A DNA stretch of 64,000 nt, from NCBI RefSeq assembly GCF_000195315.1, contig NC_015389.1, positions 682,001 through 746,000 of the forward strand, written 5' to 3'. Made by a program: the position numbers and the translations under genes. This DNA is from Coriobacterium glomerans PW2 (GTDB lineage: Bacteria; Actinomycetota; Coriobacteriia; Coriobacteriales; Coriobacteriaceae). How positions within the stretch are numbered: the first letter of the stretch is position 1; every line of letters starts with the position of its first letter. The notes under the pieces are model-generated. The model was not told the DNA's origin, did no database searches, and saw only the letters and a list, made by a program, of their open reading frames with translations. Shown in pieces: positions 17,994-54,239 of this stretch.

Positions 17994-18883
17994 GCAGGCG
18001 GGGTCCGCGGCGCGCAGCTTCAGCGTCCGCTCTGCTGGCCGGCTGCGCGGGTCTCGGCGCGATCTCGGCTCTGATCGCCGTGATCCGCGCTGCGCGTCTC
18101 GCCAGCACCGATGCCGACGCAGCCGTCATCCGAACGCTGCGGCGGGTCGGCCGAGAGCCGATCAGGGTGCTTTGCCAGGGAGGCGCATATCAATCGGCGA
18201 CCTATATCGGCAAGCGGTGGGCCGAGCCGGTGTTCGCCTATCATCGCGCACTTGACGCGCTGTTCGCAGCAGAGGAGGATCTGATCGCGGCAAGCGGTCA
18301 CGCCGTGCGCGATGTGCTCATGATCGGCGGCGGTGGCTATGCCTATCCCAAACATGCCCTTCTGGAGCATCCCGAGATACGCATGGATGTCGTCGAGATC
18401 GATGCGCGCATCGAGCGACTCGCCCGACGCTGGTTCTATCTGGATCGGCTCATCTCCCTCACCGGGTCGCGTCTGCGCTGCATCACCGCAGACGGACGAT
18501 CCTTCTTGGAGTCCGCTGGGCGCTGCTATGACGCCATCATCAACGATTCGTTCATCGGACGCGCGCCCGCGCGCGATCTGGCGACGCTCGAGGCCGCGCG
18601 AGCAGTGAGCCGGCGGCTGAATCCGGGTGGGGTCTATCTCGCCAACGTGTCCACCGAGTGCGATGGCGCGGACCCCGCCTTCCTGCGGCGGGTGTGCGCA
18701 ACCCTTGCGCCCGTCTTCGATCATGTGCGCATCATCGACGCGACCGATGAGGAGCTGGCCGCAGAGCGCACCTATCTCGTGATCGCCGGCGACGGCGATC
18801 ATGTATGGAGCGAGAGCATAGCCTACGACGAGAGCTTTCTGGGTGAGGTGCTCCTCGATGCGGAGGCGCCGGCCGCCCATTGA
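17990..18883 (+). CDS. Spermidine-synthase-like SAM-fold protein with N-terminal membrane segment
   Basis: A 297-aa protein. Residues about 12-33 are hydrophobic, probably a membrane anchor. The rest has the polyamine synthase fold: VLMIGGGGYAYPKHALLE (motif I), MDVVEIDARIERLARRWF and DAIINDSFIGRAP. In true spermidine synthases the last segment is DLIIxDxxDP; the Asp-Pro here differs, so aminopropyl transfer is uncertain. It overlaps elp3 by 4 bp and converges on the helicase gene, overlapping its 3' end by 61 bp. Role unknown; coupling with elp3 could mean tRNA-related methyl or aminopropyl chemistry, but this is speculation. Confidence 0.7.
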   Translation: MSRRGPRRAASASALLAGCAGLGAISALIAVIRAARLASTDADAAVIRTLRRVGREPIRVLCQGGAYQSATYIGKRWAEPVFAYHRALDALFAAEEDLIAASGHAVRDVLMIGGGGYAYPKHALLEHPEIRMDVVEIDARIERLARRWFYLDRLISLTGSRLRCITADGRSFLESAGRCYDAIINDSFIGRAPARDLATLEAARAVSRRLNPGGVYLANVSTECDGADPAFLRRVCATLAPVFDHVRIIDATDEELAAERTYLVIAGDGDHVWSESIAYDESFLGEVLLDAEAPAAH

Positions 18884-21237
18884 CGCACGCGCTGTCTCAT
18901 CCCCTCGATGTCGAGCACGCCCTCCGCGAATCCCTTGCGCACGAGTTGCGCCGGTAGAAATCTATCATATTTGTTGAAGTTGGGCGTCTCGGTCGGGTAG
19001 AGCAGATCGATCGGCTCGAAGTCCGCCTCGGCCGCCTCGCTCACGACCGAGATGAACGACGCGGCATCCGCCTTCATCTTGAACTGGAGGAAGTACGGCC
19101 TTGACACATCCATGCCGGACAAGCCGAGTCGTCGCGCGCATCTGATCTTGAGCAGCCGCTCGAGAGCGAGAAATGCGTAGCTGCCGAGCCACGGCATCAA
19201 ACACCATGTGTCGCCACCCAGACAGATCAGAGGTTCGCTCACCGCTCCCGAGAGCTGCGCGGCGCGTCTGGCCTGATCGAGTCGAGCGCGGGCGTTGTCG
19301 AGCAGATACGGGTAGACATCTCGCTCGGCGAGCACGCCGCGCATCCTCTCGAGCACGCGAGTGTGGATATCTCCCGGGCACTCGCCGAAGTAAGCGGGCA
19401 CCCGTCCTTTGACCTGCGTGCAGTAGACGAGATGGCGCTTCCAGTCTATCTCCTCGACGATCCAGCAATGACCTGCGATCGCGATGCGCTCCCCGGGGGG
19501 CGGGGGATTCACGATCGTTCCCAGCTCCGAGGACGCGCACCTGACCGTGAACTCCTCATTCTCCTGAAAGACCGCGTAGAACTTATAGGAGTTGACCACC
19601 CGCTCGCCAGCGAGCCCGATGATGAGCCCGCCGCCCTCGGTCCGCTCGAGATGATCCGTCTGAAGCAGATGGGTGAGCAGCGTCCGGTAGTCATCCAGGC
19701 TCACGCGATGAAACGGGCTCAGGGTGAGGACCCGCTCGGCCAGAGCGGCGCAGGAGAGCTCCCCTGTGCCGGCGAGCGTCGCCATGGTCTGATGGTAGAG
19801 CAGGCTGTAGGGGAGCCTGTCTGCACGCGGTGGCTCGACCCAGCGCTCTTCGCGGTAGAGCTGGATGAGCGCGCAGCCTTGGATGAGCTTCCAGGGAACG
19901 GTCTGCGGCATCGGATCTCGCGCCTGCGGTTGCTCTTCGCGCATGACGAAATGCATCTCGGGTGGCAGATCTCGACGCCCGGTCCGGCCCATGCGCTGCA
20001 GAAACGATGAAACGGTCCAGGGCGCATCGATCTGGAAGGCGCACTCGAGTCGGCCGATATCGATACCCAGCTCCAGTGTCGCGGTCGTGACGGTCGTCTG
20101 GTTCTGCTCTTCGTCTCGCATCAGCTGCTCGGCGGTTTCGCGGAAGGATGAGGAAAGGTTGCCGTGGTGGATGAGGAAGCGATCGGGTTCGCGCAGCGCC
20201 TCGCCGAGGGATCGAAGCATCGTGCAGACGGCTTCTGCCTCCTCCCGCGAGTTCACGAAGACGAGGCACTTGCGGCGCCGCGTATGCTCGAAGATGTAGC
20301 CGATGCCGGGATCGGCGTCGACCGGGGCAGCGGATGCCGGATCGCCTCGCCCGCTCACCTGCGCGCGGGAGATCGATGACTCCTCCTCGATCTTCGCGCC
20401 ATCCGCGCTGGCACCCGCTGCGCACCCGCCTGTCCCGTCCTCGGGTCGGATGGGACGGCTCTCGATGCGCTCGCAGCTCACCACCTCGGTCTGCCGCGCG
20501 AGCAAGCTCTCGACCGCGGCTTCGGAGGCCTGGGGCCCGCTGATATAGAAGTGCTCCATCGAGAGTCGCCAGGTTCGTCGGGGTTCCTCGAAGCGCGGCA
20601 CGATCGTGGCCCGCCCCGTGCCCGCTCCGAGCATCTCCGCGCAGCGCCGCGGATCGCCGATCGTGGCCGAAAGTCCGATGCGCCGCGGCCGCGCGCCCGC
20701 CATGCGCGACAGCCGCTCGATCAGGCAGAGCGTCTGAGCGCCTCTCTCACCGCGAAGAACCGAGTGGACCTCGTCGATGATGACGAACCGCAAATCGCAA
20801 AAGGCCCTGGGAACGCAACCATGTTTGTGCATGAGAAGAGCTTCCAGCGATTCGGGCGTGATCTGGAGGATGCCCTGGGGATGTCTGAGCATCTTGCTCT
20901 TGTGCGAGGCCGAGACGTCTCCGTGCCAGCGCCAAACCGGGATATCGGCTTCATCGCAAAGATCGCCCAGCCGCAGAAACTGGTCGTTGATCAAGGCTTT
21001 GAGCGGAGCGATGTAGACCGCGCCGATCGAGGTAGGTTGATCCTGCCAGAACAGCGTGAGAATCGGGAAGAGGGCCGCCTCGGTCTTGCCAGATGCGGTC
21101 GAGGCGCAGAGCAGGACGTTCTCGTCGGTGTTGAAGATGGCGTCGGCGGCGGCGACCTGAATGGAGCGAAGGTTCTCCCAATCGTGGGCGTAGATGAAAT
21201 CTTGGATGAACGGTGCGTAGCGATCAAAGGTGCTCAT
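18823..21237 (-). CDS. BrxHI/Lhr-like superfamily II DNA/RNA helicase
   Basis: An 804-aa ATP-dependent helicase, third gene of the TerB/BrxD operon. Motif I is ASTASGKT (45-52), motif Ia YIAPLKALIND, motif II DEVH (155-158), motif III GLSATIGDP; the second RecA domain has VNSREEAE, HHGNLSS, TATLELGIDIG and QRMGRTGRRD. This order and wording match the Lhr-like family that includes BrxHI of type 2 BREX. Between the RecA domains (about residues 250-305) lies a low-complexity insert rich in Ala, Gly, Asp and Ser. The C-terminus is a winged-helix/DUF-type extension. It starts 6 bp after the ATPase stop, so the genes are co-transcribed. It probably translocates on DNA or RNA as part of a complex with the other two products. 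Confidence 0.85.
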   Translation of the reverse strand: MSTFDRYAPFIQDFIYAHDWENLRSIQVAAADAIFNTDENVLLCASTASGKTEAALFPILTLFWQDQPTSIGAVYIAPLKALINDQFLRLGDLCDEADIPVWRWHGDVSASHKSKMLRHPQGILQITPESLEALLMHKHGCVPRAFCDLRFVIIDEVHSVLRGERGAQTLCLIERLSRMAGARPRRIGLSATIGDPRRCAEMLGAGTGRATIVPRFEEPRRTWRLSMEHFYISGPQASEAAVESLLARQTEVVSCERIESRPIRPEDGTGGCAAGASADGAKIEEESSISRAQVSGRGDPASAAPVDADPGIGYIFEHTRRRKCLVFVNSREEAEAVCTMLRSLGEALREPDRFLIHHGNLSSSFRETAEQLMRDEEQNQTTVTTATLELGIDIGRLECAFQIDAPWTVSSFLQRMGRTGRRDLPPEMHFVMREEQPQARDPMPQTVPWKLIQGCALIQLYREERWVEPPRADRLPYSLLYHQTMATLAGTGELSCAALAERVLTLSPFHRVSLDDYRTLLTHLLQTDHLERTEGGGLIIGLAGERVVNSYKFYAVFQENEEFTVRCASSELGTIVNPPPPGERIAIAGHCWIVEEIDWKRHLVYCTQVKGRVPAYFGECPGDIHTRVLERMRGVLAERDVYPYLLDNARARLDQARRAAQLSGAVSEPLICLGGDTWCLMPWLGSYAFLALERLLKIRCARRLGLSGMDVSRPYFLQFKMKADAASFISVVSEAAEADFEPIDLLYPTETPNFNKYDRFLPAQLVRKGFAEGVLDIEGMRQRVRQWAAGASASRSTSPRKLSS

Positions 21238-21243
21238 GATGAA

Positions 21244-22647
21244 CTATATCTCGAATTCGGTGAAGAGGCGGCGATTGCGCTCGGTGCCTATCTCGATGCC
21301 GTCCGATCCGCCCGACGGCATCGTCGCCTGTGAAGCCCCCAGGGCCTCTGAAAGATCGAGCTGCGGGTTCTGATACAAGATGTCGAGCAGTTCGATGAAG
21401 TCGCGAATCACCTCGCGCGGCGTCAGATGCGTTTCGGCTCCCATGCGAGCGAACTCGATCTTCAGAAACTCAGCCAGATCGCGCTCATCGAGTCGCGTTG
21501 GATATCCGAAATAGCCCGCATGGATACCGGCGAGCTTCTCGACGAGCACCAACAGCTCTTCATAGGTGAGCTGGTGCAGGCGCACGATCGGTGCGAGCAT
21601 GTCAGCCGCGTCCTCGCGCGCGAATCGACCCTGCGCGAGTCGGCTGCGCAGCGCCTCGTAGCTGAACACCCCGCGACGACGGTCCTCGACGGTTTGGGGC
21701 GTGCCGCCCATGATGATGCCAAGGTGGCGCGCTTTGCCCTGAAGGGTATCGTTGTACATCGTCAGGATCTTCTCGTAATTGTACTGGCGCGTGACAGCGT
21801 TCGGGATCTTGTGAAGGTTGACCAGCTCGTCTATGAGCACGAGCATGCCCCGATAGCCCGCGCCGACCATGAATTGAGCGAAGAGCTTGATATAGTCGTA
21901 CCAGTTGTCCTCGCTGATGATGGCGGTGACCCCCAGCTCGTCGCGCGCCTCGGTTCTCGTTCGATATTCGCCGCGCAGCCATTTGATCACCAGCGATCCG
22001 ATCTCGGTCTCACCGCTCGCATGCGCTCGGTAATACTTGATAAGGAGCTGTGTGAAGTCGAAGCCGTGCACCATATCCGAGAGCATGGCGATCCGCTCGC
22101 GGATTCGCCGCTCGACGATCGCCGCGAATCGAGGATCGTCGGCATCGGGTACCTTGCCTGCCGCTGTCGCTGCCGGGGTCAGCGCGCCGGAGTGCGCGTC
22201 CTCTTCGGAGGCGACCTCGGCCTCGACCGACGAGATCCATCGATCCAAGATGAGGGGCAGCGCTCCGCCCTCCGGCCGCGTTTTCGTGGAGAGGTTTCGC
22301 ATGAGTTCGCGATAGGTGGCCAAACCCTGTCCCTGACCACCCTGAAGGCGGCGATCCGGTGAGAGGTCGGCATCGGCGACCACGAAGTCGCGGCCCATGG
22401 CATGGGTTCTGATGGTTTGGAGCAAAAACGACTTGCCGCAGCCGTAGCGTCCGACGAGGAAGCGGAAGGATGCGCCACCTTCTGCGATGAGGTCGAGATC
22501 GCAGAGCAGCGCGCGAATCTCGACCTCGCGCCCCACGGTTATGTAGGGCAGACCTATCCGCGGCACCACTCCTCCCTTCAAGGAATTGATGATCACGGCG
22601 GCGACGCGCTTCGGAACGCGTGGCGGCTGGCTTGCGGACTCACTCAT
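21244..22647 (-). CDS. BrxD-like P-loop ATPase (DUF2791/BrxC-BrxD superfamily)
   Basis: A 467-aa ATPase. An N-terminal helical segment reads VAAVIINSLKGGVVPRIGLPYITVGRE, the typical BrxD opening. Walker A is GRYGCGKS (66-73), Walker B is LVLIDE (269-274), and a sensor-like region reads GIIMGGTPQTVEDRRRGVFSYEALRSRL. An acidic/Ala-rich insert lies at 145-172. BrxD acts in type 2 BREX phage defence, but PglX, PglZ, BrxC/PglY and PglW are not in this window. Its start overlaps the TerB-domain gene stop by 4 bp (22644-22647). It probably forms an oligomeric motor or loader for the following helicase. Confidence 0.85.
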   Translation of the reverse strand: MSESASQPPRVPKRVAAVIINSLKGGVVPRIGLPYITVGREVEIRALLCDLDLIAEGGASFRFLVGRYGCGKSFLLQTIRTHAMGRDFVVADADLSPDRRLQGGQGQGLATYRELMRNLSTKTRPEGGALPLILDRWISSVEAEVASEEDAHSGALTPAATAAGKVPDADDPRFAAIVERRIRERIAMLSDMVHGFDFTQLLIKYYRAHASGETEIGSLVIKWLRGEYRTRTEARDELGVTAIISEDNWYDYIKLFAQFMVGAGYRGMLVLIDELVNLHKIPNAVTRQYNYEKILTMYNDTLQGKARHLGIIMGGTPQTVEDRRRGVFSYEALRSRLAQGRFAREDAADMLAPIVRLHQLTYEELLVLVEKLAGIHAGYFGYPTRLDERDLAEFLKIEFARMGAETHLTPREVIRDFIELLDILYQNPQLDLSEALGASQATMPSGGSDGIEIGTERNRRLFTEFEI

Positions 22648-24266
22648 ATTCGGACGATCTCCTTAAGGTCGCTCTCGTAATCGTCGATGGCTCGCGGGCT
22701 GCCGTCGACGCACTCGATGACGGTGTCGCCGAGGATCTCGAGCATCTTCTCGTTGATAGCGTCGATCAGCATATCCTGGCTGATTCTCGCTGCGGCTTGC
22801 GCAACCGAGCGCGCGCGCTCGTCTCGATCGAGCAGCGCACGCAGCCAATCGGCCTCCTCCGCGCTGAGCGGTCCGCTTCCCGCCGCTTGGGCTGGAGCCC
22901 GACTGATTCTGGCGCCACCGTCCTGCGGAGCCGCGGGCACTCGCGAGAGGAGGGGGTCGCTGGGCGCGTCTTTCGTCGCGGTCGTCTCGTCGGGGTCGAG
23001 ACCCTCTGAGGGCCCGGGCGCGCGCTCCTCATCCACGAGCAGCGCCTCGCAGACCCCTTCGGCTGCCTTGCGGATCCTTGCGAGCTTGGACAGATCTATA
23101 TCGATCACTCGAGGGGCGTGGTCGCGCTTCCAGCCCAGCCAGGTCTCGATCTCCCGATCGATGATCTTCGCCAGGTACTTCGGTGTGCTCCCCTCCTTGA
23201 GGGGATGGGCCGGGTCGAGCTTCAGCCGCAGCCTGCAGTCGAGTGCGCGCATGATGCGTCCGAGCTTTGCGCTCCTGGACCGGCTGGCATGCTTCCGCGA
23301 ACAGGTCCAGCGGCCCCGCTCGCATCGGTAGCTGCAGACTCCGTCAAGTTCAAAACAGGCGCGCCTGTGCGGGTTCCTTTCGAAGAAGACCGCGGATCGA
23401 AACATCTCGTATGGCTCCTCGGAGGCTCTTCCGAAAAGGTTCTCGCTCAGACTCAGCTTGCAGCGGCGGTCGCAGTGCTGCGCCAAGCGCGCGTAGACGG
23501 CGCATGCGCAGCGCCGCATGTCCTCGGGGTGGTCTCGAAAGAGTCTCGAGGCGGTGATGCGATACGTGGACAGCGTCTCGATGGCGCCGAGCAGCCGCCT
23601 CTCGCGTTCGACGTCGGGCGGCAGCGGGAGGGGGCGGGGCTCGATGCGATCGAGCTCGGCGAGCGCGCCATCGAAGATGACCTCTCGGCATCCCGCTATG
23701 AGCCCGGGATCGAGATCATGATAGACAACCATATCCCGCCGCCAGATGCGCGCGTAGCGATCGATATTCGAGTTGAGGGCGCGCCACGCGCGCCAGAAGG
23801 AATCGAATCGGGAGAACGCCTCAAGCGGATCGTCCACACCGATGCCGTTGATGAGTTCGTACAGGTAGACGTAGGCAAACGAGAGCGATGCGTCCTCGAC
23901 GCGGCCTGCGCGCACCGCCGAGCGCCATGTGAAGTAACCGCGCAGCTGGCGGTCGCTCATTGCGCTGTAGGTGGGAAAGTACGACTTGAACGCGCCGTGA
24001 TAGGGGCACTCGTCGACGACGTCGGCCATGAAATCGCCCTGAAGGCAGAACAGCTCGCCGTCCGATAGCCATCGAGGCCGCGAGTCCACCTGTCGTACGC
24101 GCGAGATCGCACGCATGCGACGGTAGCGATCGGGAAGATAGGTCGACATCTGCCGGCCCGTCATGAGGATCGGCTCCTCGCCGTGGATGGTCTCAGAGAA
24201 ATGGGAGGTGCCGTGCCAGCGCTCATCGCTCAGAATGCGCGCTATGAGCTCTTGGGCATCCGACAT
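22644..24266 (-). CDS. TerB-N/TerB-C domain protein
   Basis: A 540-aa protein, first of the three-gene operon. The TerB-N domain (about 25-235) shows LPDRYRRMRAI, then WLSDGELFCLQGDFM, the core FKSYFPTYSAMSDRQLRGYFTWRSAVRAG and SFAYVYLYELINGIGV. The TerB-C domain (about 385-540) shows DIDLSKLARIRKAAEGVCEALLVDEE and, after a Pro/Ala-rich linker (420-465), the ending DTVIECVDGSP...DYESDLKEI. The central region is Cys/Arg-rich (CSYRCERGRWTC) and may bind metal. Comparative genomics has linked TerB domains to tellurite/stress islands and DNA processing; no TerC/TerD genes are here. ATG 24266 follows GAGGAGAGGAG. Its partners are the BrxD-like ATPase and Lhr-like helicase. Confidence 0.87.
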   Translation of the reverse strand: MSDAQELIARILSDERWHGTSHFSETIHGEEPILMTGRQMSTYLPDRYRRMRAISRVRQVDSRPRWLSDGELFCLQGDFMADVVDECPYHGAFKSYFPTYSAMSDRQLRGYFTWRSAVRAGRVEDASLSFAYVYLYELINGIGVDDPLEAFSRFDSFWRAWRALNSNIDRYARIWRRDMVVYHDLDPGLIAGCREVIFDGALAELDRIEPRPLPLPPDVERERRLLGAIETLSTYRITASRLFRDHPEDMRRCACAVYARLAQHCDRRCKLSLSENLFGRASEEPYEMFRSAVFFERNPHRRACFELDGVCSYRCERGRWTCSRKHASRSRSAKLGRIMRALDCRLRLKLDPAHPLKEGSTPKYLAKIIDREIETWLGWKRDHAPRVIDIDLSKLARIRKAAEGVCEALLVDEERAPGPSEGLDPDETTATKDAPSDPLLSRVPAAPQDGGARISRAPAQAAGSGPLSAEEADWLRALLDRDERARSVAQAAARISQDMLIDAINEKMLEILGDTVIECVDGSPRAIDDYESDLKEIVRI

Positions 24267-24299: not shown

Positions 24300-24308
24300 A
24301 TCATAGCA
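24300..24308 (-). promoter_or_regulatory. Extended -10 promoter element of the TerB/BrxD/helicase operon
   Basis: On the minus strand TGCTATGAT (TGn plus TATGAT) lies 34 bp before the ATG. No good -35 is seen, as is usual with extended -10 promoters. The 153-bp spacer to purL holds no gene. Confidence 0.4.
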
Positions 24309-24419
24309 TAACAGGCAAACACATGTTCGCTTCGCAGGGAAAGCGCATATTCCCTCCGGTTCGCATGCGGCTGACGCAAACGTGGCGAGGCGGGCGCGGC
24401 ACCAAAGATCTGGTCTGGA

Positions 24420-27400
24420 TCATGCCGAGAAGTAGGAGACTCCGCTTTCGAAGATCGGCATCCAGGTGTTGCCGGGGACGTTCGCATACAGATTCCGACC
24501 TCGGCGCTCCGTATGGCCCATCTTGCCGAGCACGCGCCCGTCGGGGCTCGAGATCGCCTCGATCGCCATGAGCGAGCCATTGGGGTTGACGTCGAGCGCC
24601 ATCGACGGCGCGCCGTCCTCATCGACGTACTGCGCGGCGATCTGCCCGGAGCTGGCGAGCTCGGAGAGCACCTCGGCCGGAGCTTCGAAGCGGCCCTCGC
24701 CGTGCGAGACGGGCACCGTATAGATCGTGTCCGAATCGCACGCGCTCACCCAGGGGGACAGGTCGCTCGCCAGGCGGACGCGAACGAGCCTGCTTTGATG
24801 ACGCCCGATGGTGTTGAGCGTGAGCGTGGGGTCCTGCGCGGTTGCGGTCACGATGTCGCCGTGGGCGATGAGCCCGAGCTTGATGAGGGCTTGAAATCCG
24901 TTGCAGATCCCGAGCATGAGCCCGTCACGCTCTCCCAGGAGCTCGCGCACGGCATCGGCGACCTCGGGGGCGCGGAAGAACGCCGTGATGAACTTCGCCG
25001 ATCCGTCCGGCTCATCGCCGCCTGAGAACCCACCCGGTATCATGACGATCTGGCTCGAGCGGATTCGTCGAGCCAGTTCCGCGGTGCTCTCGGCGACGTC
25101 GGACGGGGTGAGGTTTCCGAGCACGAGCGCATCGCAGACGGCACCCGCCGCCTCGAAGGCGCGAACGCTGTCATATTCGCAGTTGGTCCCTGGGAAGATC
25201 GGGATCACGACGCGCGGTTTGGCGATCCGACCGCGCCGGCGCTTCGCCGGTCTCGCTCGATCTGCGGACGCGTGCCAGATAAGCCGCTCGACGGATTCGA
25301 GCCCCTGCTGCTCCTCGCCCGCCGCGCGATATGGAAACACCGATTCGAGCGCGCTCTCCCAGCGCTGCTGGAGCTCATCGAGATCAATCGTCTCGCCGGC
25401 CCCGCGGAGCTCGAAGGCCTCGAGCGTCGTCCCGAGCGGCTCGATGACGACATCGTCTGGCCCCTGCGGCAGATCCGCCGTATCGGCGACCTCGACGATG
25501 AAGCTGCCGTACATCGGTTCGAACAGCGAGTCGATGTCGACATCGCGTGAGAGGGCGACGCCGACGCGGTTGCCCACAGACATCTTGAACAGCTCCTCCG
25601 CGCCGCAGCCGTAGCCCGGCGTCGCGATCGCGAGCGCCGAGGCGGCCCCGGTCATGTCCTCGACGATTCGAAGCGCGCTCAGAAGCGCCTGCGGGGCGGG
25701 CCTGCGATCGGTCCCGTATGCGGCGGGGGCTATGCGTACGATTCTGTGACCGGCGGCCTTGAACTCCGGAGAGACCGCGCGGTCGGCCGGGCCGGTCGAG
25801 ACGGCGAACGAGACGAGCGTCGGTGGCACATCCAGGTTCTCGAAGCTGCCGCTCATCGAGTCCTTGCCGCCGATCGCCGCCACCTTGAGATCGATCTGAG
25901 CCATGAGGGCGCCGAGCAGCGCGCTGACCGGCTTGCCCCACCGCTTCGGGTCGGATCGCAGCCGCTCGAAGTACTCCTGAAACGAGAGATAGGCGCTCGC
26001 GCGCGTGAAGCCGGAGGCCACGAGTTTCGAGATGCTCTCGACGACGCTGAGATACGCTCCGGCGAACGGATCGAGTTCCATGAGGAAGGGATTGAAGCCG
26101 AATGCCATGGCGCTCGCTGTGCGAGTCTCGCCGTCGACGGGAAACTTCGCGACCATAGCTTGGGCCGGGGTGAGCTGGCTCGATCCGCCGAACGGCATGA
26201 GTACGGTCGCAGCTCCGATCGTGGAGTCGAAGCGCTCGGCGAGTCCTTTGTTCGAGCACACGTTGAGATCGCTGACAAGCGAGCTCAGCCGTTCGGCCAA
26301 CGTCTCGCCCGGCCATGTCGGCTGCCAGATCCGGCGGGCTTCCACCCGCGCTCGCGCGTGCTTCGGCGCACCGTTGCTCGCGAGAAACGCGCGAGCGATG
26401 TCGACGATGACATCTCCGCGCCAGATCATGCGCACGCGCTCATCGTCGGTGACCTCGGCGATGACGGTCGCTTCCAGATTCTCCGAGCGCGCCAGCGACA
26501 TGAACTCCTCGACATCTTCGGCCGAGACGGCAACGGCCATGCGCTCTTGACTTTCAGAGATCGCGAGCTCGGTGCCATCGAGACCCTCGTATTTCTTCGT
26601 CACCCGGTCGAGATCGATCGCGAGTCCGTCTGCCAGCTCGCCCACGGCCACCGCGACCCCGCCGGCGCCGAAGTCGTTGCAGCGCTTGATGAGACGACAG
26701 GCGCGCTCGCCGCGGAACAGCCGCTGGAGCTTTCGCTCGACCGGTGCGTTGCCCTTCTGGACCTCTGCTCCGCATGTCTCGATGCTCTCGGCGCTATGAG
26801 TCTTGGACGAACCGGTGGCGCCGCCGATGCCGTCGCGACCCGTCCGCCCACCGAGCAGGATGATCTTGTCGCCAGGACACGGCCGTTCGCGATGCACGTG
26901 AGACGCCGGGGTCGCGCCCACCACGGCTCCGATCTCCAAGCGCTTTGCGACGTAGCCGGGGTGGTAGATCTCAGTGACCTGACCGGTCGCCAGACCGATC
27001 TGGTTGCCGTAGCTCGAGTATCCCTGGGCCGCCGCCGTCACGAGCTTTCGCTGCGGCAGCTTGCCGGGCAGCGTGTCGGCTACCGGTGCCAGCGGGTCCG
27101 CCGCTCCGGTGACGCGCATGGCCTGGTAGACGTAGGAGCGCCCGGACAAGGGGTCTCGAATCGCCCCTCCGATGCAGGTCGCTGCCCCTCCGAAGGGTTC
27201 GATTTCGGTGGGATGGTTGTGCGTCTCGTTCTTGAACAGCAAGAGCCAGTCCTCATCGCGACCGTTCACGTCGACAGCCGCGTGCACGCTGCAGGCATTG
27301 ATCTCCTCGGACTCGTCGACGCCGCGCAGCTCACCGCTCGCCTTCAGATGGCGCGCGCCGATCGTGCCCATGTCCATGAGCGTGACGGGTCGCTCCGCGC

Positions 27401-28172
27401 GCCCCAGATCCCGTCGAATTCTCAGATACCGCTCGTATGCGTCGCGCACGTCATCGTCTTCGATCTCGATATCGGCCAGCTGCGTGCCGAACGTCGTATG
27501 GCGGCAGTGATCCGACCAGTAGGTGTCGATGACGCGCAGCTCGGTGATGGAGGGATCCCGGTGCTCCCCTCGAAAGTACGTCTGGCAAAAGGAGATGTCG
27601 GCGGCGTCCATGGCGAGCCCGCGCTCAGCGATCAGCTTGTCGAGCCCGTCCGCATCGAGGTCGCGAAAGCCGTTCAGCATCTCGACGGATTCTGGGATCG
27701 AAGACTCGGCGGCAAGCGTCTCGGGCAGCTCGAGGCGGGCCGGGCGCGCCTCGACGGGATTCACGACATATCGCTCGATAGCGGCCGCCTCGCCGGCGCT
27801 CAGATGCCCTTCGAGCACGTAGACCCTGGCCGAGCGCACCTGTGGTCGCTCGCCTTGGGATATGAGCTGTATGCACTCGCTTGCGGACTCGGCGCGCTGA
27901 TCGAACTGGCCGGGAAGAAACTCGACGGCGAACACCGTCGCTTCCTCGGCGCGGGGCAGCTCGCGGGTCGCGACATCTACCTGCGGCTCGGAGAAGACCG
28001 TGGTGACAGCGTAGCGGAACAGCTCCTCGCTGATGCCCTCGACGTCATAGCGGTTCACGATGCGGACGCGCCTGAGACCGGGCACGCCGAGGGTGGCGCG
28101 CAACTCGTCTCCCAACCGCTGGGCCTCGATATCGAGGCCTGTTCTCTTCTCAACATAGATACGGCAGACCAT
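24420..28172 (-). CDS. purL: Phosphoribosylformylglycinamidine synthase, fused PurL-PurQ
   Basis: A 1250-aa single-chain FGAM synthase for step 4 of purine synthesis (FGAR + Gln + ATP to FGAM). Order: N-terminal PurS-like part, linker with ELRVIDTYWSDHCRHTTF, first AIR-synthase half with FKNETHNHPTEIEPFGGAATCIGG, second half, then a class I glutaminase domain: VIPIFPGTNCEYDS, LGICNGFQ (Cys about 1090) and GKMGHTERR. This large form is known from Proteobacteria and also from several Gram-positive gut bacteria. ATG 28172 with GAAGGGCGAGGG before it. It is monocistronic here, and I saw no purine or PRPP riboswitch in the 287-bp divergent upstream region. Confidence 0.95.
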   Translation of the reverse strand: MVCRIYVEKRTGLDIEAQRLGDELRATLGVPGLRRVRIVNRYDVEGISEELFRYAVTTVFSEPQVDVATRELPRAEEATVFAVEFLPGQFDQRAESASECIQLISQGERPQVRSARVYVLEGHLSAGEAAAIERYVVNPVEARPARLELPETLAAESSIPESVEMLNGFRDLDADGLDKLIAERGLAMDAADISFCQTYFRGEHRDPSITELRVIDTYWSDHCRHTTFGTQLADIEIEDDDVRDAYERYLRIRRDLGRAERPVTLMDMGTIGARHLKASGELRGVDESEEINACSVHAAVDVNGRDEDWLLLFKNETHNHPTEIEPFGGAATCIGGAIRDPLSGRSYVYQAMRVTGAADPLAPVADTLPGKLPQRKLVTAAAQGYSSYGNQIGLATGQVTEIYHPGYVAKRLEIGAVVGATPASHVHRERPCPGDKIILLGGRTGRDGIGGATGSSKTHSAESIETCGAEVQKGNAPVERKLQRLFRGERACRLIKRCNDFGAGGVAVAVGELADGLAIDLDRVTKKYEGLDGTELAISESQERMAVAVSAEDVEEFMSLARSENLEATVIAEVTDDERVRMIWRGDVIVDIARAFLASNGAPKHARARVEARRIWQPTWPGETLAERLSSLVSDLNVCSNKGLAERFDSTIGAATVLMPFGGSSQLTPAQAMVAKFPVDGETRTASAMAFGFNPFLMELDPFAGAYLSVVESISKLVASGFTRASAYLSFQEYFERLRSDPKRWGKPVSALLGALMAQIDLKVAAIGGKDSMSGSFENLDVPPTLVSFAVSTGPADRAVSPEFKAAGHRIVRIAPAAYGTDRRPAPQALLSALRIVEDMTGAASALAIATPGYGCGAEELFKMSVGNRVGVALSRDVDIDSLFEPMYGSFIVEVADTADLPQGPDDVVIEPLGTTLEAFELRGAGETIDLDELQQRWESALESVFPYRAAGEEQQGLESVERLIWHASADRARPAKRRRGRIAKPRVVIPIFPGTNCEYDSVRAFEAAGAVCDALVLGNLTPSDVAESTAELARRIRSSQIVMIPGGFSGGDEPDGSAKFITAFFRAPEVADAVRELLGERDGLMLGICNGFQALIKLGLIAHGDIVTATAQDPTLTLNTIGRHQSRLVRVRLASDLSPWVSACDSDTIYTVPVSHGEGRFEAPAEVLSELASSGQIAAQYVDEDGAPSMALDVNPNGSLMAIEAISSPDGRVLGKMGHTERRGRNLYANVPGNTWMPIFESGVSYFSA

Positions 28173-41904: not shown

Positions 41905-42582
41905 ATGGAGCTCGATACCGATCCGAAAGGCAGCATCCAAATTGAGACTGTGGTGAACGGTCCCATCGAGACGAACACGTATTTCGTGATCTCGGGCGCT
42001 GAGGCGGTGGTCATCGATCCGGCTTGGGATGGCGCGAAGCTCACCCGTGATTTCGAGAAGGGCTACCCGGGCGTCACGATTCGCGCGATCATCTCGACGC
42101 ATGGTCATGCCGATCACGTGGGCGGTGTGGCCGCGATGCGCAAGGAGCTGGGGGCTGACGTGGCGTTTCTGATATCGGCCGCCGATGCCGCGTTGATAGG
42201 GACTGCCATCAAGAGCATGAAGGAGCGCTGGGGCGTGACCGTGGAGGATCCCGGTGAGCCCTCTCGTCTGCTCGCCGAGGGCGACACCATAGAGTTCGGT
42301 GACGCGGTCCTCCAAGTGATCGAGACACCCGGTCACACGCCCGGCGGCATCGTTTTGTTCACGGCGACCGATCAGGGCGATATCGCTTTCGTCGGCGACA
42401 CGCTGTTTCCGAGCAGCCACGGTCGCACGGATCTCGAGGGGGGCGACGAGTGCGCGATGCTGCACTCGCTGACGAAGCTCGCCCGGCTGCTGCCTGCCGA
42501 CACCCACTGTCTGGTCGGACACGGTCGCAGTACAACGATGGCCGAGGAACTCGAGTTCAACCCGTTCATGTCAGCCTCCTGA
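41905..42582 (+). CDS. MBL-fold metallo-hydrolase (glyoxalase II-like)
   Basis: A 225-aa cytoplasmic metallo-beta-lactamase-fold protein. Metal motif STHGHADHVGG (His66, His68, Asp70, His71), GHTPGG, GDTLF and GHGRST give the usual binuclear site. It begins two bases after the Rel stop, and its GGAGGAG site lies inside rel. The same neighbours (rel then this MBL protein) are common in Gram-positives. It is glyoxalase II-like, but the substrate is unproven. Confidence 0.9.
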   Translation: MELDTDPKGSIQIETVVNGPIETNTYFVISGAEAVVIDPAWDGAKLTRDFEKGYPGVTIRAIISTHGHADHVGGVAAMRKELGADVAFLISAADAALIGTAIKSMKERWGVTVEDPGEPSRLLAEGDTIEFGDAVLQVIETPGHTPGGIVLFTATDQGDIAFVGDTLFPSSHGRTDLEGGDECAMLHSLTKLARLLPADTHCLVGHGRSTTMAEELEFNPFMSAS

Positions 42583-43673: not shown

Positions 43674-43759
43674 GCCCGAGTGGCGGAACGGCAGACGCAG
43701 GGGACTCAAAATCCTCCGATGGCGACATCGTGTGAGTTCAAATCTCACCTCGGGCACCA
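43674..43759 (+). tRNA. tRNA-Leu (CAA anticodon)
   Basis: GCCCGAG...CTCGGGC acceptor stem, class II long variable arm, GTTCAAATC T-loop and coded CCA end (43757-43759). The anticodon loop is CTCAAAA, so the anticodon is CAA (reads UUG). 86 nt. Confidence 0.95.
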
Positions 43760-45860: not shown

Positions 45861-50770
<4,910 letters not shown>

Positions 50771-50923
50771 ATCCCTCACAAGGGCCCCGAGGGCGCCACG
50801 CCCGAGGGTGCCGCGATACACCATCAGATCCCGATCGGGTCTCCCTTCTCATGTGCTGTGCGGCCCCCAGGGGGGCGCGGGGGAGATCCCCGGACAGACC
50901 GATCGGGCGGGGCGCCGCCCACC

Positions 50924-51040
50924 GGTCAGCGGTCACAGCAGGGGTGGCACGCCCGGAACCGTTCCGAACCCGGAAGCTAAGCCCCCGAGCGCCGATGGTA
51001 CTGCGGGGTCAGCCCGTGGGAGAGCAGGACGCCGCTGACC
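50924..51040 (+). rRNA. rrf: 5S ribosomal RNA
   Basis: About 117 nt. Terminal stem GGTCAGCGGT/GCCGCTGACC, loop sequence CCGTTCCGAACCCGGAAG and TGGTACTGC...GTGGGAGAG. The 150-bp 23S-5S spacer has no tRNA. Confidence 0.93.
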
Positions 51041-51546: not shown

Positions 51547-51647
51547 ATCCCATCGAGCAGGAAGCATATCGCGGAGATGCCGCGACGCCGTCGAGCGCAT
51601 CGAGGAGGGGCACCCGCGAGCGCGCCGCTGAGAGGGGAGCGATGATG

Positions 51648-54239
51648 ATGAGAAGAGCCGTCCGCGTCAGACGGGCGCTCGCCAGAGCGCTCGTCCTCGC
51701 GGCTGTCTGCGTGCTGGCGGTCGGCCTCATCGTTTCGATGCATGGTTCCGCTGCAGCTGAGGTCGCCGACGGAGTGGACGCAGGCGGAGAGTCGTCCATC
51801 GAGCGCTCCGATTTGCGCCGCGGCGAACGAGAAGCGAGGAGCGACGCGGATCCGCGGCCCGCTGCCGCCGACGATGCGGATCGAGACGACGCTCGCGCCG
51901 ATCCCGCTCAGAGCGGACAGACGGAGCAGACGAGAGTGGACATGTCCGTCGCGCAGCATCCCGCGCGCGCAACGGGCGCCGGTCAGAGCGAGCGGGCCGA
52001 TCAGTCGGATGAGAGCGCTGACCGCTCGCCGGACGCACAGCCGGGGGGAGAGAGCGTCTCCGAGATCGCCTCGGGCATCATGGCGACCTCCGACGGGGGC
52101 GACGTGAGATGGCGCATCGATGACGCCGGCGTCCTCACCATCTCCGGCCATGGGAGGATGACCCAGGCGGGATACGAGACGCCTTGGGCTTACTATCGCG
52201 AGCAGCGTCTGACGCGCGTCCGCATTCAGGGGGACCCCGGCACCGAGGGCATCGTCCCTGAGTCCACGCGGCAGTGGTTCGCGGGAACCGACTACAACAA
52301 GAGCAAACTCGTTGCATTCGAGGCCACCGGTCTGGACATGTCCGCGTGCGCCGACGCCTCCTCCATGTTCTACGATTGCAAATCGCTGACCGCCTTGGAT
52401 GTGTCGGGATGGGACACATCAAGCATGAAAGACATGTCTTACATGTTCTGCAGATGCTCCTCTCTGCCCTCGCTGGACGTTTCGGGCTTCGACACCTCGA
52501 AGGTGACGGACATATCCTACATGTTCTCCGGCTGCTCCTCCCTTTCCTCCCTGGACGTCACCGGCTTCGACACCTCGCAGGTGACGAGCATGTCCTACAT
52601 GTTCGAAGACTGCTCCTCCCTGCCCTCCCTGGACGTCACCGGCTTCGACACCTCGAAGGTGACGACCATGGATAATATGTTCTACGGCTGCTCCAAGGTG
52701 CCCTCCCTGGACGTCACCGGCTTCGACACCTCGAAGGTGACGGATATGACCCGGATGTTCCAAAGCTGCTCCTCCCTGCCCTCTCTGGACGTCACCGGCT
52801 TCGATACCTCGCAGGTGACGGACATGTCCTTCATGTTCTACGGCTGCTCCTCCCTGCCCTCTCTGGATGTCACCGGCTTCGACACCTCGAAGGTGACGGT
52901 CATGTCCAACATGTTCACCGACTGCTCCTCCCTGCCCTCCCTGGATGTCACCGGCTTCGATACCTCGCAGGTGACGCGCATGTCCACCATGTTCACCGGC
53001 TGCACCTCCCTGACCTCTCTGGACCTCTCCGGCTTCGACACCTCGAAGGTGACGAGCATGGAATCCATGTTCAACCGCTGCTCCTCCCTGACTTCTCTGG
53101 ATCTCTCCGATTTCGACACCTCGAAGGTGAAGGACATGACTTGGATGTTCGTCTATTGCTCCAAGCTGTCCTCTCTGGATCTCTCCGGCTTCGACACCTC
53201 GCAGGTGACGCGCATGTTCGAAATGTTTTGCGGGTGCTCCCTTCTGACCTCCTTGGACCTTACCGACTTCGACACCTCGAAGGTGACGGACATGTCTAGG
53301 ATGTTCCGAGACTGTCGCTCCCTGTCGCGCATCGATCTCGGCGCGCGGTGGGCGTTCAAGAGCGGCGGGTCGTGCGAGCTTCGCGAGGCGCGCTCTGACG
53401 AGGGGCACACCGGGATGTGGCAAGCGATCGGGGAGGGCACCGAGGCCGTCCCGCTCGGGCGGGTCCTCAGCGCGAAGGAGCTCATGGAGACCTACGATGG
53501 CAAGACGATGGCCGACGCCTATGTGTGGCAGCCGGCGTTCCATCTCGTCTACGAGGCCAACGCCGATGACGCCGCCGGCTCCACGGCTCCTACCAGAGGG
53601 GGTTCCGGTGCCACGGTGAGCGTCTCCGCGTGCGGCTTTCGCCGACCTTACGACCGGTTCACCCGCTGGAGCACCGAGCCGGACGGCTCAGGGGCCTCCT
53701 ACGTCCCCGGCGACCCCTTCGTGCTCGCCGCTCGCTCCCAGGTGCTCTATGCCCAGTGGGAGACCACCGTGTCCAAGTCTCTGATTGTGCGCAGCCTCAC
53801 CGAGGGCGACGCCCCGGTGGCCGGGGCCGCCTACGTCCTGGGCTCGCGCGACGGCGACGCCGCCTCCGGGGTCGAGGCCTACACCGACGAGGCGAGGACC
53901 GAGCGGGCGTCCTGGCCGCAGCGCTCCGGCGCCGACGGCGAGCTGCGCCTCTACGGTCTGGTCCCGGGCACCTACCACCTGTTCGGAACCGAGGTGCCGG
54001 CGGGCTACCAGCGAGCCGAGCGCTCGCATGAGATCGTGATCGACGAGCGCGATCACGCCTTCGTCGACGGGCAGCCCGTCGAGGGCGACCCGGTGCGCCT
54101 CACCATGGTCTACGAGAGGGCCCCGGAGCTGCCGGGCACCGGCGCGACGGCACCGGTCCCGACGCAGGGCCTCTGCGCGCTGGCGGCGGCGGGGACCGCG
54201 GTGGCCGCCGCGGCGCTCGCGCGGCGCGCCATGCGCTAG
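51648..54239 (+). CDS. BspA-type leucine-rich-repeat surface protein, LPXTG-anchored
   Basis: An 863-aa cell-wall protein. N-terminal signal peptide (ALARALVLAAVCVLAVGLIV), then an acidic, Ser/Asp/Arg-rich region (about 45-150). From about 225 to 565 lie 12 tandem 26-residue DUF285/BspA LRRs of the form MxxMFxxCSSLxSLDVTGFDTSKVTx, plus one degenerate first unit. Then an InlB-type B-repeat-like segment (FHLVYEAN...VLYAQWE), a SpaA/Cna-B-like domain (VAGAAYVLGS...GTYHLFGTEVPAGYQ), and a sortase signal LPGTG, hydrophobic helix and RRAMR tail. A role in adhesion to host or other bacteria is likely from the family. Three ATGs start in a row (51642, 51645, 51648); GGGGAG spacing favours the third. 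Preceded by its own promoter. Confidence 0.9.
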   Translation: MRRAVRVRRALARALVLAAVCVLAVGLIVSMHGSAAAEVADGVDAGGESSIERSDLRRGEREARSDADPRPAAADDADRDDARADPAQSGQTEQTRVDMSVAQHPARATGAGQSERADQSDESADRSPDAQPGGESVSEIASGIMATSDGGDVRWRIDDAGVLTISGHGRMTQAGYETPWAYYREQRLTRVRIQGDPGTEGIVPESTRQWFAGTDYNKSKLVAFEATGLDMSACADASSMFYDCKSLTALDVSGWDTSSMKDMSYMFCRCSSLPSLDVSGFDTSKVTDISYMFSGCSSLSSLDVTGFDTSQVTSMSYMFEDCSSLPSLDVTGFDTSKVTTMDNMFYGCSKVPSLDVTGFDTSKVTDMTRMFQSCSSLPSLDVTGFDTSQVTDMSFMFYGCSSLPSLDVTGFDTSKVTVMSNMFTDCSSLPSLDVTGFDTSQVTRMSTMFTGCTSLTSLDLSGFDTSKVTSMESMFNRCSSLTSLDLSDFDTSKVKDMTWMFVYCSKLSSLDLSGFDTSQVTRMFEMFCGCSLLTSLDLTDFDTSKVTDMSRMFRDCRSLSRIDLGARWAFKSGGSCELREARSDEGHTGMWQAIGEGTEAVPLGRVLSAKELMETYDGKTMADAYVWQPAFHLVYEANADDAAGSTAPTRGGSGATVSVSACGFRRPYDRFTRWSTEPDGSGASYVPGDPFVLAARSQVLYAQWETTVSKSLIVRSLTEGDAPVAGAAYVLGSRDGDAASGVEAYTDEARTERASWPQRSGADGELRLYGLVPGTYHLFGTEVPAGYQRAERSHEIVIDERDHAFVDGQPVEGDPVRLTMVYERAPELPGTGATAPVPTQGLCALAAAGTAVAAAALARRAMR
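52330..53330 (+). repeat. Tandem 78-bp repeats coding for BspA-type LRRs
   Basis: About 12 units of 78 bp. Long segments such as CTGCTCCTCCCTGCCCTC and GGCTTCGACACCTCGAAGG recur almost unchanged, so the array is recent at the DNA level and open to unit gain and loss. Confidence 0.9.

What the first reader, a model, noticed from the sequence alone, without database searches (positions are those of the whole stretch)
18823..24266. Compact TerB-N/C + BrxD-like ATPase + BrxHI/Lhr-like helicase operon without other BREX genes
Three genes overlap or abut (4-bp overlap, then 6 bp). BrxD and BrxHI are known parts of type 2 BREX. Here they are joined to a TerB-N/TerB-C protein, a domain associated by comparative genomics with stress and DNA processing, and there is no methyltransferase (PglX), PglZ phosphatase, BrxC or PglW. 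The setting between a spermidine-synthase-like gene and purL is housekeeping-like and base usage looks native, so this may be a stably inherited nucleic-acid processing or defence module and not a degraded BREX island. I propose a TerB-led complex recruiting an ATPase-loaded helicase.
Basis: partly seen in the sequence, partly recalled or inferred. Interest (0 to 1): 0.85.

Follow-up and report, generated by a model that had tools for sequence, protein, structure and literature searches.

The report
SOS-linked core Shango operon
The three genes are a copy of Shango, a known anti-phage system, but in this bacterial family they look like a permanent chromosomal gene set with the switch used by DNA-damage genes, which suggests that a defence machine became part of the cell's own DNA-damage response.

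Summary
The operon (18823-24266, minus strand) matches the Shango models SngA, SngB and SngC far better than BrxD/BrxHI. No PglZ and no second BrxC/BrxD-type ATPase was found in the genome.

Two things are unusual. (1) It is a core gene set: SngC is in 64 of 65 genomes of the window's family (Coriobacteriaceae: Collinsella, Enorma), 57 of 57 near-complete ones; Cas1 is in 21 of 60 genomes. History is mainly vertical; SngB and SngC are strongly constrained. (2) A LexA-type SOS box, as before lexA and recA here, precedes sngA in 44 of 48 family genomes and control genes in 0 of 186. Where sngC is 1 kb or more from sngB it usually has its own box: 16 of 21, against 2 of 21 under 200 bp. All 48 have a box at sngA or sngC.

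Best reading: a Shango module kept as an SOS-induced DNA-processing machine. Whether it serves repair, defence or both is open; LexA control is inferred from sequence.

The parts
22644..24266 (-). sngA: TerB_N / TerB_C protein, 540 aa; C-terminal 464-540 modelled somewhat like a winged helix
   Evidence: PADLOC SngA 260 bits; model pLDDT 86; best PDB matches LysR-type DNA-binding domains, Z 5-6 over about 70 residues, a modest score
21244..22647 (-). sngB: AAA+ ATPase, 467 aa, Cdc6/Orc1-like model; Walker A GRYGCGKS, Walker B LVLIDE
   Evidence: PADLOC SngB 597 bits against BrxD 160; structure match Z 15.3, 248 aligned, 4.0 A; Walker A in 53 of 54 homologues, Walker B in 54 of 54
18823..21237 (-). 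sngC: Lhr/BrxHI-like SF2 helicase, 804 aa, motifs I, II, III, VI present; last 61 bp overlap the converging spermidine-synthase-like gene
   Evidence: PADLOC SngC 878 bits against BrxHI 397; motif I (GKT) in 56 of 56 homologues, motifs II, III, VI in 56 of 56
24316..24329 (-). LexA-type SOS box CGAACATGTGTTTG upstream of sngA
   Evidence: same kind of box before lexA (three) and recA in this genome; conserved in the family
24300..24308 (-). extended -10 element TGCTATGAT about 10 nt downstream of the box
   Evidence: sequence read; a TA...T hexamer lies at about this spacing in 44 of 44 family genomes that have the sngA box, with the TG extension in 39
24420..28172 (-). purL, upstream neighbour on the same strand (context)
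   Evidence: TIGR01857, 1814 bits
17990..18883 (+). spermidine-synthase-like gene, converging downstream neighbour (context)
   Evidence: PF01564

Best explanation
The locus is a complete Shango module (SngA TerB-N/C protein, SngB Cdc6/Orc1-like AAA+ ATPase, SngC Lhr/BrxHI-like SF2 helicase) that was fixed early in the Coriobacteriaceae as a core gene set and placed under LexA. Inferred sequence of events: in a healthy cell LexA sits on the box beside the sngA promoter; DNA damage, or phage replication that leaves single-stranded DNA, activates RecA, LexA is cleaved and the three proteins are made; SngA recognises or marks the DNA substrate, SngB loads SngC, and SngC unwinds or remodels that DNA. 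Shown here: membership by sequence, intact motifs, near-universal retention, mainly vertical history, strong purifying selection on SngB/SngC, and a conserved SOS-type box at sngA and usually a separate one at displaced sngC. Inferred: LexA binding, damage induction, complex formation, substrate. The most likely use is host DNA-damage response, perhaps doubling as defence.
For: Shango models 260/597/878 bits. SngC in 64 of 65 family genomes, 57 of 57 near-complete, 6 of 6 genera; SngB in 36 of 37 and SngA in 37 of 37 family genomes of one sample, own included, some partial; Cas1 control in 14 of the same 37. SngB+SngC tree against Elp3, 35 taxa: 12 of 32 splits shared (label shuffles: mean 0.27, maximum 3), tree-distance correlation 0.90. 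dN/dS in 11 close genomes: SngB 0.044, SngC 0.037, four neighbours 0.036-0.126. Box upstream of sngA 44 of 48; controls SngB 0 of 50, Elp3 0 of 37, SpeE 0 of 39, TrmB-like 0 of 28, MT2 0 of 32; background 0.021 per 280-bp window. sngC box 16 of 21 when 1 kb or more from sngB or not linked to it in the DNA read, 2 of 21 when under 200 bp, Fisher p 1.2e-5 without correction for relatedness; 48 of 48 have a box at sngA or sngC; after clustering at 88% SngC identity, sngA box in 22 of 25 clusters. GAAC-N4-GTTT is the most shared 4-N4-4 word upstream of sngA (43 of 48). The 40 bases before the box agree only 0.31 between 22 representatives chosen for having it. Boxes of this kind precede lexA, recA, a Y-family polymerase and ruvC in this genome.
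Against: No binding, induction or phenotype data. 4 of 48 genomes lack the box at sngA (they have it at sngC) and 5 of 21 with a distant sngC lack one there. Several genome-wide matches to the pattern lie inside genes, and the reversed control pattern is commoner than the motif, so single matches mean little without conservation. Four well-supported splits conflict between SngB+C and Elp3, and two genera (g3, g5) are not single clades in the SngB+C tree. One 97%-complete genome (G077) has SngC but no SngB at the cut-off used, and in G014 sngB lacks its first part in frame, so it may be broken or misread. The published function in what I read is anti-phage.
Confidence: 0.68

Rival explanations
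1. SOS-inducible anti-phage immunity: the module is still only a defence system, kept by constant phage pressure, and LexA is used as an infection alarm because phage replication damages or exposes DNA.
For: Shango lowers plating of many phages 10-100-fold in Pseudomonas (PMC10250203, passages). SngC groups with BrxHI, DruE and DpdJ in a helicase tree (PMC12278908, passage). A SngB-like ATPase (tblastn E up to 1e-40) is on 675 of 72,556 plasmid records, 536 predicted conjugative; three of four such regions opened are annotated with all three genes. SngA evolves faster than SngB/SngC.
Against: Near-universal retention is unusual for a single defence system; Cas1 is in 14 of the same 37 family genomes. 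The ORFs between sngB and sngC that Pfam recognised are ordinary genes (20 of 57 listed ORFs tested, 11 without a match).
Confidence: 0.35
2. SOS-induced growth arrest: the helicase-ATPase complex slows replication or kills damaged or infected cells, as some LexA-controlled toxins do (recalled).
For: SOS control would suit a costly activity (inference).
Against: No nuclease or toxin domain was found by Pfam. Conservation over a whole family is less typical of toxins (general knowledge).
Confidence: 0.1
3. Remnant of a type 2 BREX system.
For: Pfam BrxC_BrxD domain in SngB; weaker BrxD and BrxHI model hits.
Against: Shango models score 2 to 4 times higher; BrxD equivalog cut-off missed; no PglZ; no second BrxC/BrxD-type ATPase; motifs intact in the window's genes.
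Confidence: 0.02
4. Recently acquired ordinary Shango island; the box is a chance match.
For: Shango sits in variable defence hot spots in Pseudomonas (PMC10250203, passages) and on plasmids.
Against: Same chromosomal neighbours in many species; largely congruent trees; 44 of 48 against 0 of 186 control upstreams.
Confidence: 0.02

Closest known systems
Shango (SngABC) anti-phage system
   Same: Same three kinds of gene, TerB protein, ATPase, helicase; tight operon in this window
   Different: Near-universal in a whole family, mainly vertical, preceded by a LexA-type box, and in relatives often split into separate sngAB and sngC with their own boxes
Type 2 BREX (BrxD, BrxHI)
   Same: Homologous ATPase and helicase by profile
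   Different: No PglZ, no second BrxC/BrxD-type ATPase, weaker model scores, TerB protein instead
LexA/SOS regulon of Gram-positive type
   Same: GAAC-N4-GTTY box next to the promoter, shared with lexA, recA, a Y-family polymerase and ruvC
   Different: A Shango module as a member; no report found in searches of the held library (listings, partly capped)
Cdc6/Orc1-type helicase loaders
   Same: Predicted SngB fold, best aligned chain Z 15.3, 248 residues
   Different: 15% identity; Foldseek itself ranks the RADAR ATPase RdrA first (E 7e-4); partner is an SF2 helicase and not MCM; loading not shown
Hachiman (HamAB), genome-integrity sensing helicase system
   Same: An SF2 helicase in a defence system that senses DNA damage (PMC12278908, abstract and passages)
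   Different: No HamA-type nuclease; SngC was placed in another helicase clade

Membership tests
Shango | SngA-, SngB- and SngC-type proteins by model | tested here: met
   E 2.1e-77, 6.4e-180, 1.3e-264
Shango | adjacent genes for a TerB-type protein, an ATPase and a helicase | tested here: met
   4-bp overlap and 6-bp gap in the window; in relatives sngC may be displaced
Shango | TerB domain PF05099, listed for Shango in PMC10952713 (passage) | tested here: inconclusive
   Pfam found TerB_N and TerB_C but not PF05099, E up to 0.1
Shango | anti-phage activity | not testable with these tools
   published for Pseudomonas PA14 Shango and, as cited there, for E. coli (PMC10250203, passages)
Type 2 BREX | PglZ present (feature recalled) | tested here: not met
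   no PF08665 match in the genome
Type 2 BREX | BrxC-type ATPase besides BrxD (feature recalled) | tested here: not met
   one PF10923 match only, SngB itself
Type 2 BREX | BrxD equivalog | tested here: not met
   161.4 bits against cut-off 350
Type 2 BREX | PglX methyltransferase and PglW | not tested
   only PglZ and BrxC/BrxD families were searched genome-wide
LexA regulon | conserved LexA-type box at the promoter | tested here: met
   44 of 48 sngA upstreams, controls 0 of 186; -10-like hexamer about 10 nt after it in 44 of 44
LexA regulon | same kind of box before lexA and recA in the same genome | tested here: met
   three boxes before lexA, one before recA
LexA regulon | LexA binding and damage induction | not testable with these tools
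   no experiment or expression data
Cdc6/Orc1-like AAA+ | Orc/Cdc6-type AAA+ fold | tested here: inconclusive
   predicted model, pLDDT 77; top Z 15.3 to 2qby_B, other AAA+ rows at 12-13; Foldseek order differs, RdrA first

The most novel reading that the evidence does not exclude
In the Coriobacteriaceae Shango is a core SOS DNA-repair machine and not primarily immunity: a Cdc6/Orc1-like loader places an SF2 helicase on damaged or stalled DNA, SngA provides DNA recognition, and selection has repeatedly given sngC its own LexA operator when the operon broke. Anti-phage Shango elsewhere would then be the mobile form of a general DNA-lesion processor.
Probability: 0.38. Interest if true: 0.82.

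Novelty: new variant of a known kind. Interest (0 to 1): 0.62.

Why it matters
The mechanism of Shango is listed as unknown (PMC12926258, passage). A lineage that hardly ever drops it and seems to place it among SOS genes points to what it acts on: damaged or single-stranded DNA. It also gives a case of a defence system apparently turned into a core cellular function in gut bacteria such as Collinsella, testable by one induction experiment and one deletion.

Tried and rejected
BREX remnant: rejected. Cargo slot for defence genes between sngB and sngC: I first read the variable gap as such. Of 57 ORFs of 130 aa or more listed, 20 were tested by Pfam; 11 had no match and the 9 recognised were ordinary (iron hydrogenase, two LytTR, pyridoxamine oxidase-like, methyltransferase, ABC transporter, a weak NMT1-like, homoserine dehydrogenase, DUF5104). 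37 were not tested, some ORFs may be on the wrong strand, and 3 of the 20 (from G023 and G027) lie upstream of sngC only because sngAB is elsewhere; so defence genes there are not excluded. Shango as a stand-in for a missing AddAB/RecB nuclease: rejected, a PDDEXK_1 match is in 57 of 60 genomes, own included. SOS box as a general Shango property: not supported outside the class; 0 of 34 loci with a readable sngA (6 of these with under 250 bp of upstream DNA; 12 of the 48 non-family loci had no readable sngA and were dropped, and 2 are class members, one with a box), against 6 of 19 sister-family genomes, where the stretch scanned was longer and measured from the open frame. Solved relatives by sequence: none convincing for SngA, none for SngB; SngC only other SF2 helicases. 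SngA by fold: only the C-terminal winged-helix-like part matched; the rest is barely tested.

Rows dropped: the box tally used 52 of the 65 family genomes; 4 of these 52 (G015, G068, G077, G087) had no readable sngA, hence 48. Four genomes of other families, labelled 'out', were left out of family counts.
Full report
What is there. Three minus-strand genes at 22644-24266, 21244-22647 and 18823-21237 (4-bp overlap, 6-bp gap) encode a TerB_N/TerB_C protein, a BrxC/BrxD-type AAA+ ATPase and an SF2 helicase. PADLOC models name them SngA (260 bits), SngB (597) and SngC (878), ahead of BrxD (160) and BrxHI (397). The NCBIfam BrxD model scores 161 against a cut-off of 350. The genome (one contig, 2,115,681 bases, 99% complete) has no PglZ match and one BrxC/BrxD-type ATPase, SngB itself. 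This is Shango, not a reduced BREX. Shango was described in Pseudomonas as a TerB-like protein, an ATPase and a helicase that reduces plating of many phages 10-100-fold (PMC10250203, passages). It is patchy elsewhere: it sits in variable hot spots in Pseudomonas and was in only one strain of one S. aureus clonal complex (PMC13216270, passage). A 2026 review lists its mechanism as unknown (PMC12926258, passage). The TerB domain PF05099 listed for Shango in PMC10952713 (passage) was not found here; TerB_N and TerB_C were.

Which organism. The family of the window contains Collinsella, Enorma and related genera: named contigs from a genome scan hold the same DNA as the unnamed relatives in all 11 pairs checked. 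The window's own genome fits Coriobacterium glomerans PW2, 2.12 Mb and 60.4% G+C in PMC4149003 (passage); the exact base count is recalled, so the name is an inference.

A core gene set. SngC is found in 64 of 65 genomes of the family, own included, in 57 of 57 that are near-complete, and in 6 of 6 genera; the miss is 85% complete. In one sample of 60 genomes, own included, family members number 37: SngC 36, SngB 36, SngA 37 (some partial at contig ends); of the 23 others, 7, 7 and 8. As a control for defence genes, Cas1 is in 21 of the same 60, 14 of the 37. Over the class, SngB is in 163 of 396 genomes and 32 of 153 genera. One 97%-complete family genome, G077, has SngC but no SngB at that cut-off.

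Neighbours and breakage. The order sngA-sngB-(gap)-sngC-speE-like-elp3-methyltransferase-trmB-like recurs in many family members, with purL upstream of sngA in a few where it was in the stretch read. The sngB-sngC distance, measured between open frames, runs from 9 bp in the window to over 9 kb. In G023 and G027 sngAB lies elsewhere from sngC, and in G068 sngB is on another contig. ORFs in the gap that Pfam recognised are ordinary genes (20 of the 57 listed were tested, and 11 of the 20 had no match). The genes persist although the operon breaks.

History and constraint. For 35 family genomes with SngA, B, C and Elp3, the SngB+C tree shares 12 of 32 splits with Elp3 (shuffled labels: mean 0.27, maximum 3) and tree distances correlate at 0.90; there are four strongly supported conflicts, and genera g3 and g5 are not single clades in the SngB+C tree, though they are in the Elp3 tree. 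So descent is mainly vertical, not perfectly so. In 11 close genomes median dN/dS is SngA 0.112, SngB 0.044, SngC 0.037, against 0.097, 0.076, 0.036 and 0.126 for four neighbours; in a second set of 8, SngA 0.331, SngB 0.141, SngC 0.110, against 0.329, 0.209 and 0.346 for three. Median identity to the window is about 71% for SngC, 69% for SngB, 60% for Elp3 and 46% for SngA; that script then stopped with an error on an empty later gene, after these lines and after saving its tables. Helicase motifs I, II, III and VI are kept in 56 of 56 SngC homologues, Walker B in 54 of 54 and Walker A in 53 of 54 SngB homologues; in G014 the start of sngB is out of frame, so that copy may be broken or misread.

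The SOS box. Between purL and sngA lies CGAACATGTGTTTG (24329-24316) followed by an extended -10, TGCTATGAT. In this 2.1-Mb genome the pattern CGAAC-N4-GTTYG occurs at five places: before sngA, before recA, before a small gene (L182), and two inside genes. A looser pattern also finds boxes before lexA, a Y-family polymerase and ruvC, and several inside genes; lexA has three. The reversed control pattern is commoner than the motif, so the case rests on conservation. With one fixed pattern, within 250 bp upstream of the homology-based gene start: sngA 44 of 48 family genomes; SngB 0 of 50, Elp3 0 of 37, SpeE 0 of 39, TrmB-like 0 of 28, MT2 0 of 32; background 0.021 per window. The pattern was written after seeing the window and first relatives, but it is the known Gram-positive LexA form (recalled) and matches this genome's lexA and recA sites. 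Without assuming it, GAAC-N4-GTTT is the most shared 4-N4-4 word upstream of sngA, 43 of 48. After clustering at 88% SngC identity, 22 of 25 clusters have it. Anchored on the box, 22 representatives agree 0.99 at the fixed positions, 0.31 in the 40 bases before and 0.45 after, where the -10 lies; these were chosen for having the box, so only the flanks are informative there. A TA...T hexamer lies about 10 nt after the box in 44 of 44, with a TG extension in 39.

The second operator. sngC has its own box in 16 of 21 genomes where it is 1 kb or more from sngB or sngB is not linked to it in the DNA read, 3 of 10 at 200-1000 bp, and 2 of 21 under 200 bp (Fisher p 1.2e-5 for the outer groups, not corrected for relatedness; by cluster 12 of 15 against 2 of 9). 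The four genomes with no box at sngA have one at sngC, so 48 of 48 have at least one. In several sngC promoters the -10-like sequence lies before the box and not after it, which suggests operators gained separately. This pattern is hard to explain without selection for SOS control.

Outside the family. Of 20 genomes from two sister families, 19 had a readable sngA and 6 of these a box, in longer stretches. Of 34 loci outside the class with a readable sngA, mostly Lactobacillaceae and rumen bacteria, none had one. SOS control therefore looks specific to this branch. Of four plasmid regions opened, one Paenibacillus region had a match to the pattern near sngA. A SngB-like ATPase (tblastn, E up to 1e-40) is on 675 of 72,556 plasmid records, 446 of them Klebsiella; three of the four opened are annotated with all three genes.

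Structures. SngA was modelled at pLDDT 86; residues 464-540 resemble winged-helix DNA-binding domains (Z 5-6 over about 70 residues, a modest score), the rest had no match. SngB, pLDDT 77, aligns best with Cdc6/Orc1 initiators (Z 15.3, 248 residues, 4.0 A), with other AAA+ proteins at 12-13; Foldseek itself ranks the RADAR ATPase RdrA first (E 7e-4) and lists a BREX BrxC chain at rank 18. That fits a helicase-loading ATPase but does not show it.

Mechanism and limits. The best-supported picture is a DNA-processing module made when LexA is cleaved: SngA binds or marks the substrate, SngB loads SngC, SngC unwinds. Retention, constraint and SOS control favour a role in the cell's own DNA-damage response; published activity favours defence; both may hold. 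It does not replace AddAB-type nucleases, which are present (PDDEXK_1 in 57 of 60). In the held library, searches for Shango with LexA (one unrelated paper), Collinsella with Shango (four papers, listing only, titles on colorectal cancer and gut microbes), SOS with anti-phage defence (78 papers, 12 listed) and LexA/SOS with Coriobacteria terms (1,251 papers, ten listed) showed no report of this; most subscription journals are not in the library and the listings were capped, so novelty in print is not proved.

Noticed in passing
45861-51040 (+): Complete rRNA operon (16S, 23S, 5S) with tRNA-Leu at 43674; it explains the strong purine skew at 46-50 kb.
   Followed up: yes
51642-54239 (+): 865-aa surface-type protein with about eleven 26-residue (78-bp) repeats of the kind DMSYMFYGCSSLPSLDVTGFDTSKVT and a C-terminal LPGTG that looks like a sortase anchor.
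   Followed up: no
L182:1531-1833 (own genome, about 1633.4 kb): Small gene of 101 aa, no Pfam match, with a perfect SOS-type box before it; a possible unnamed SOS gene.
   Followed up: partly
L212:1535-1915 (own genome, about 453.8 kb): 127-aa ORF without Pfam match next to a perfect AGAACATATGTTCG box.
   Followed up: no
G006:C34:43771-44517: Second, partial SngC (C-terminal third, 74% identical) about 17 kb from the full copy, a possible duplication remnant.
   Followed up: no
G014 (L044): sngA frame runs on to 868 aa and the start of sngB, with Walker A, is out of frame: a broken copy or an assembly error in a 99%-complete genome.
   Followed up: partly
G077 (L170): Near-complete genome with SngC and a box before it but no SngB at E 1e-80; either a loss or an assembly gap.
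   Followed up: no
42547-42558: The only other match to the LexA-type pattern in the window, GGAACTCGAGTTCA; probably chance.
   Followed up: no
own genome C1:2040265-2040936 and C1:494779-495390: Cas1 matches, so two possible CRISPR-Cas loci.
   Followed up: no
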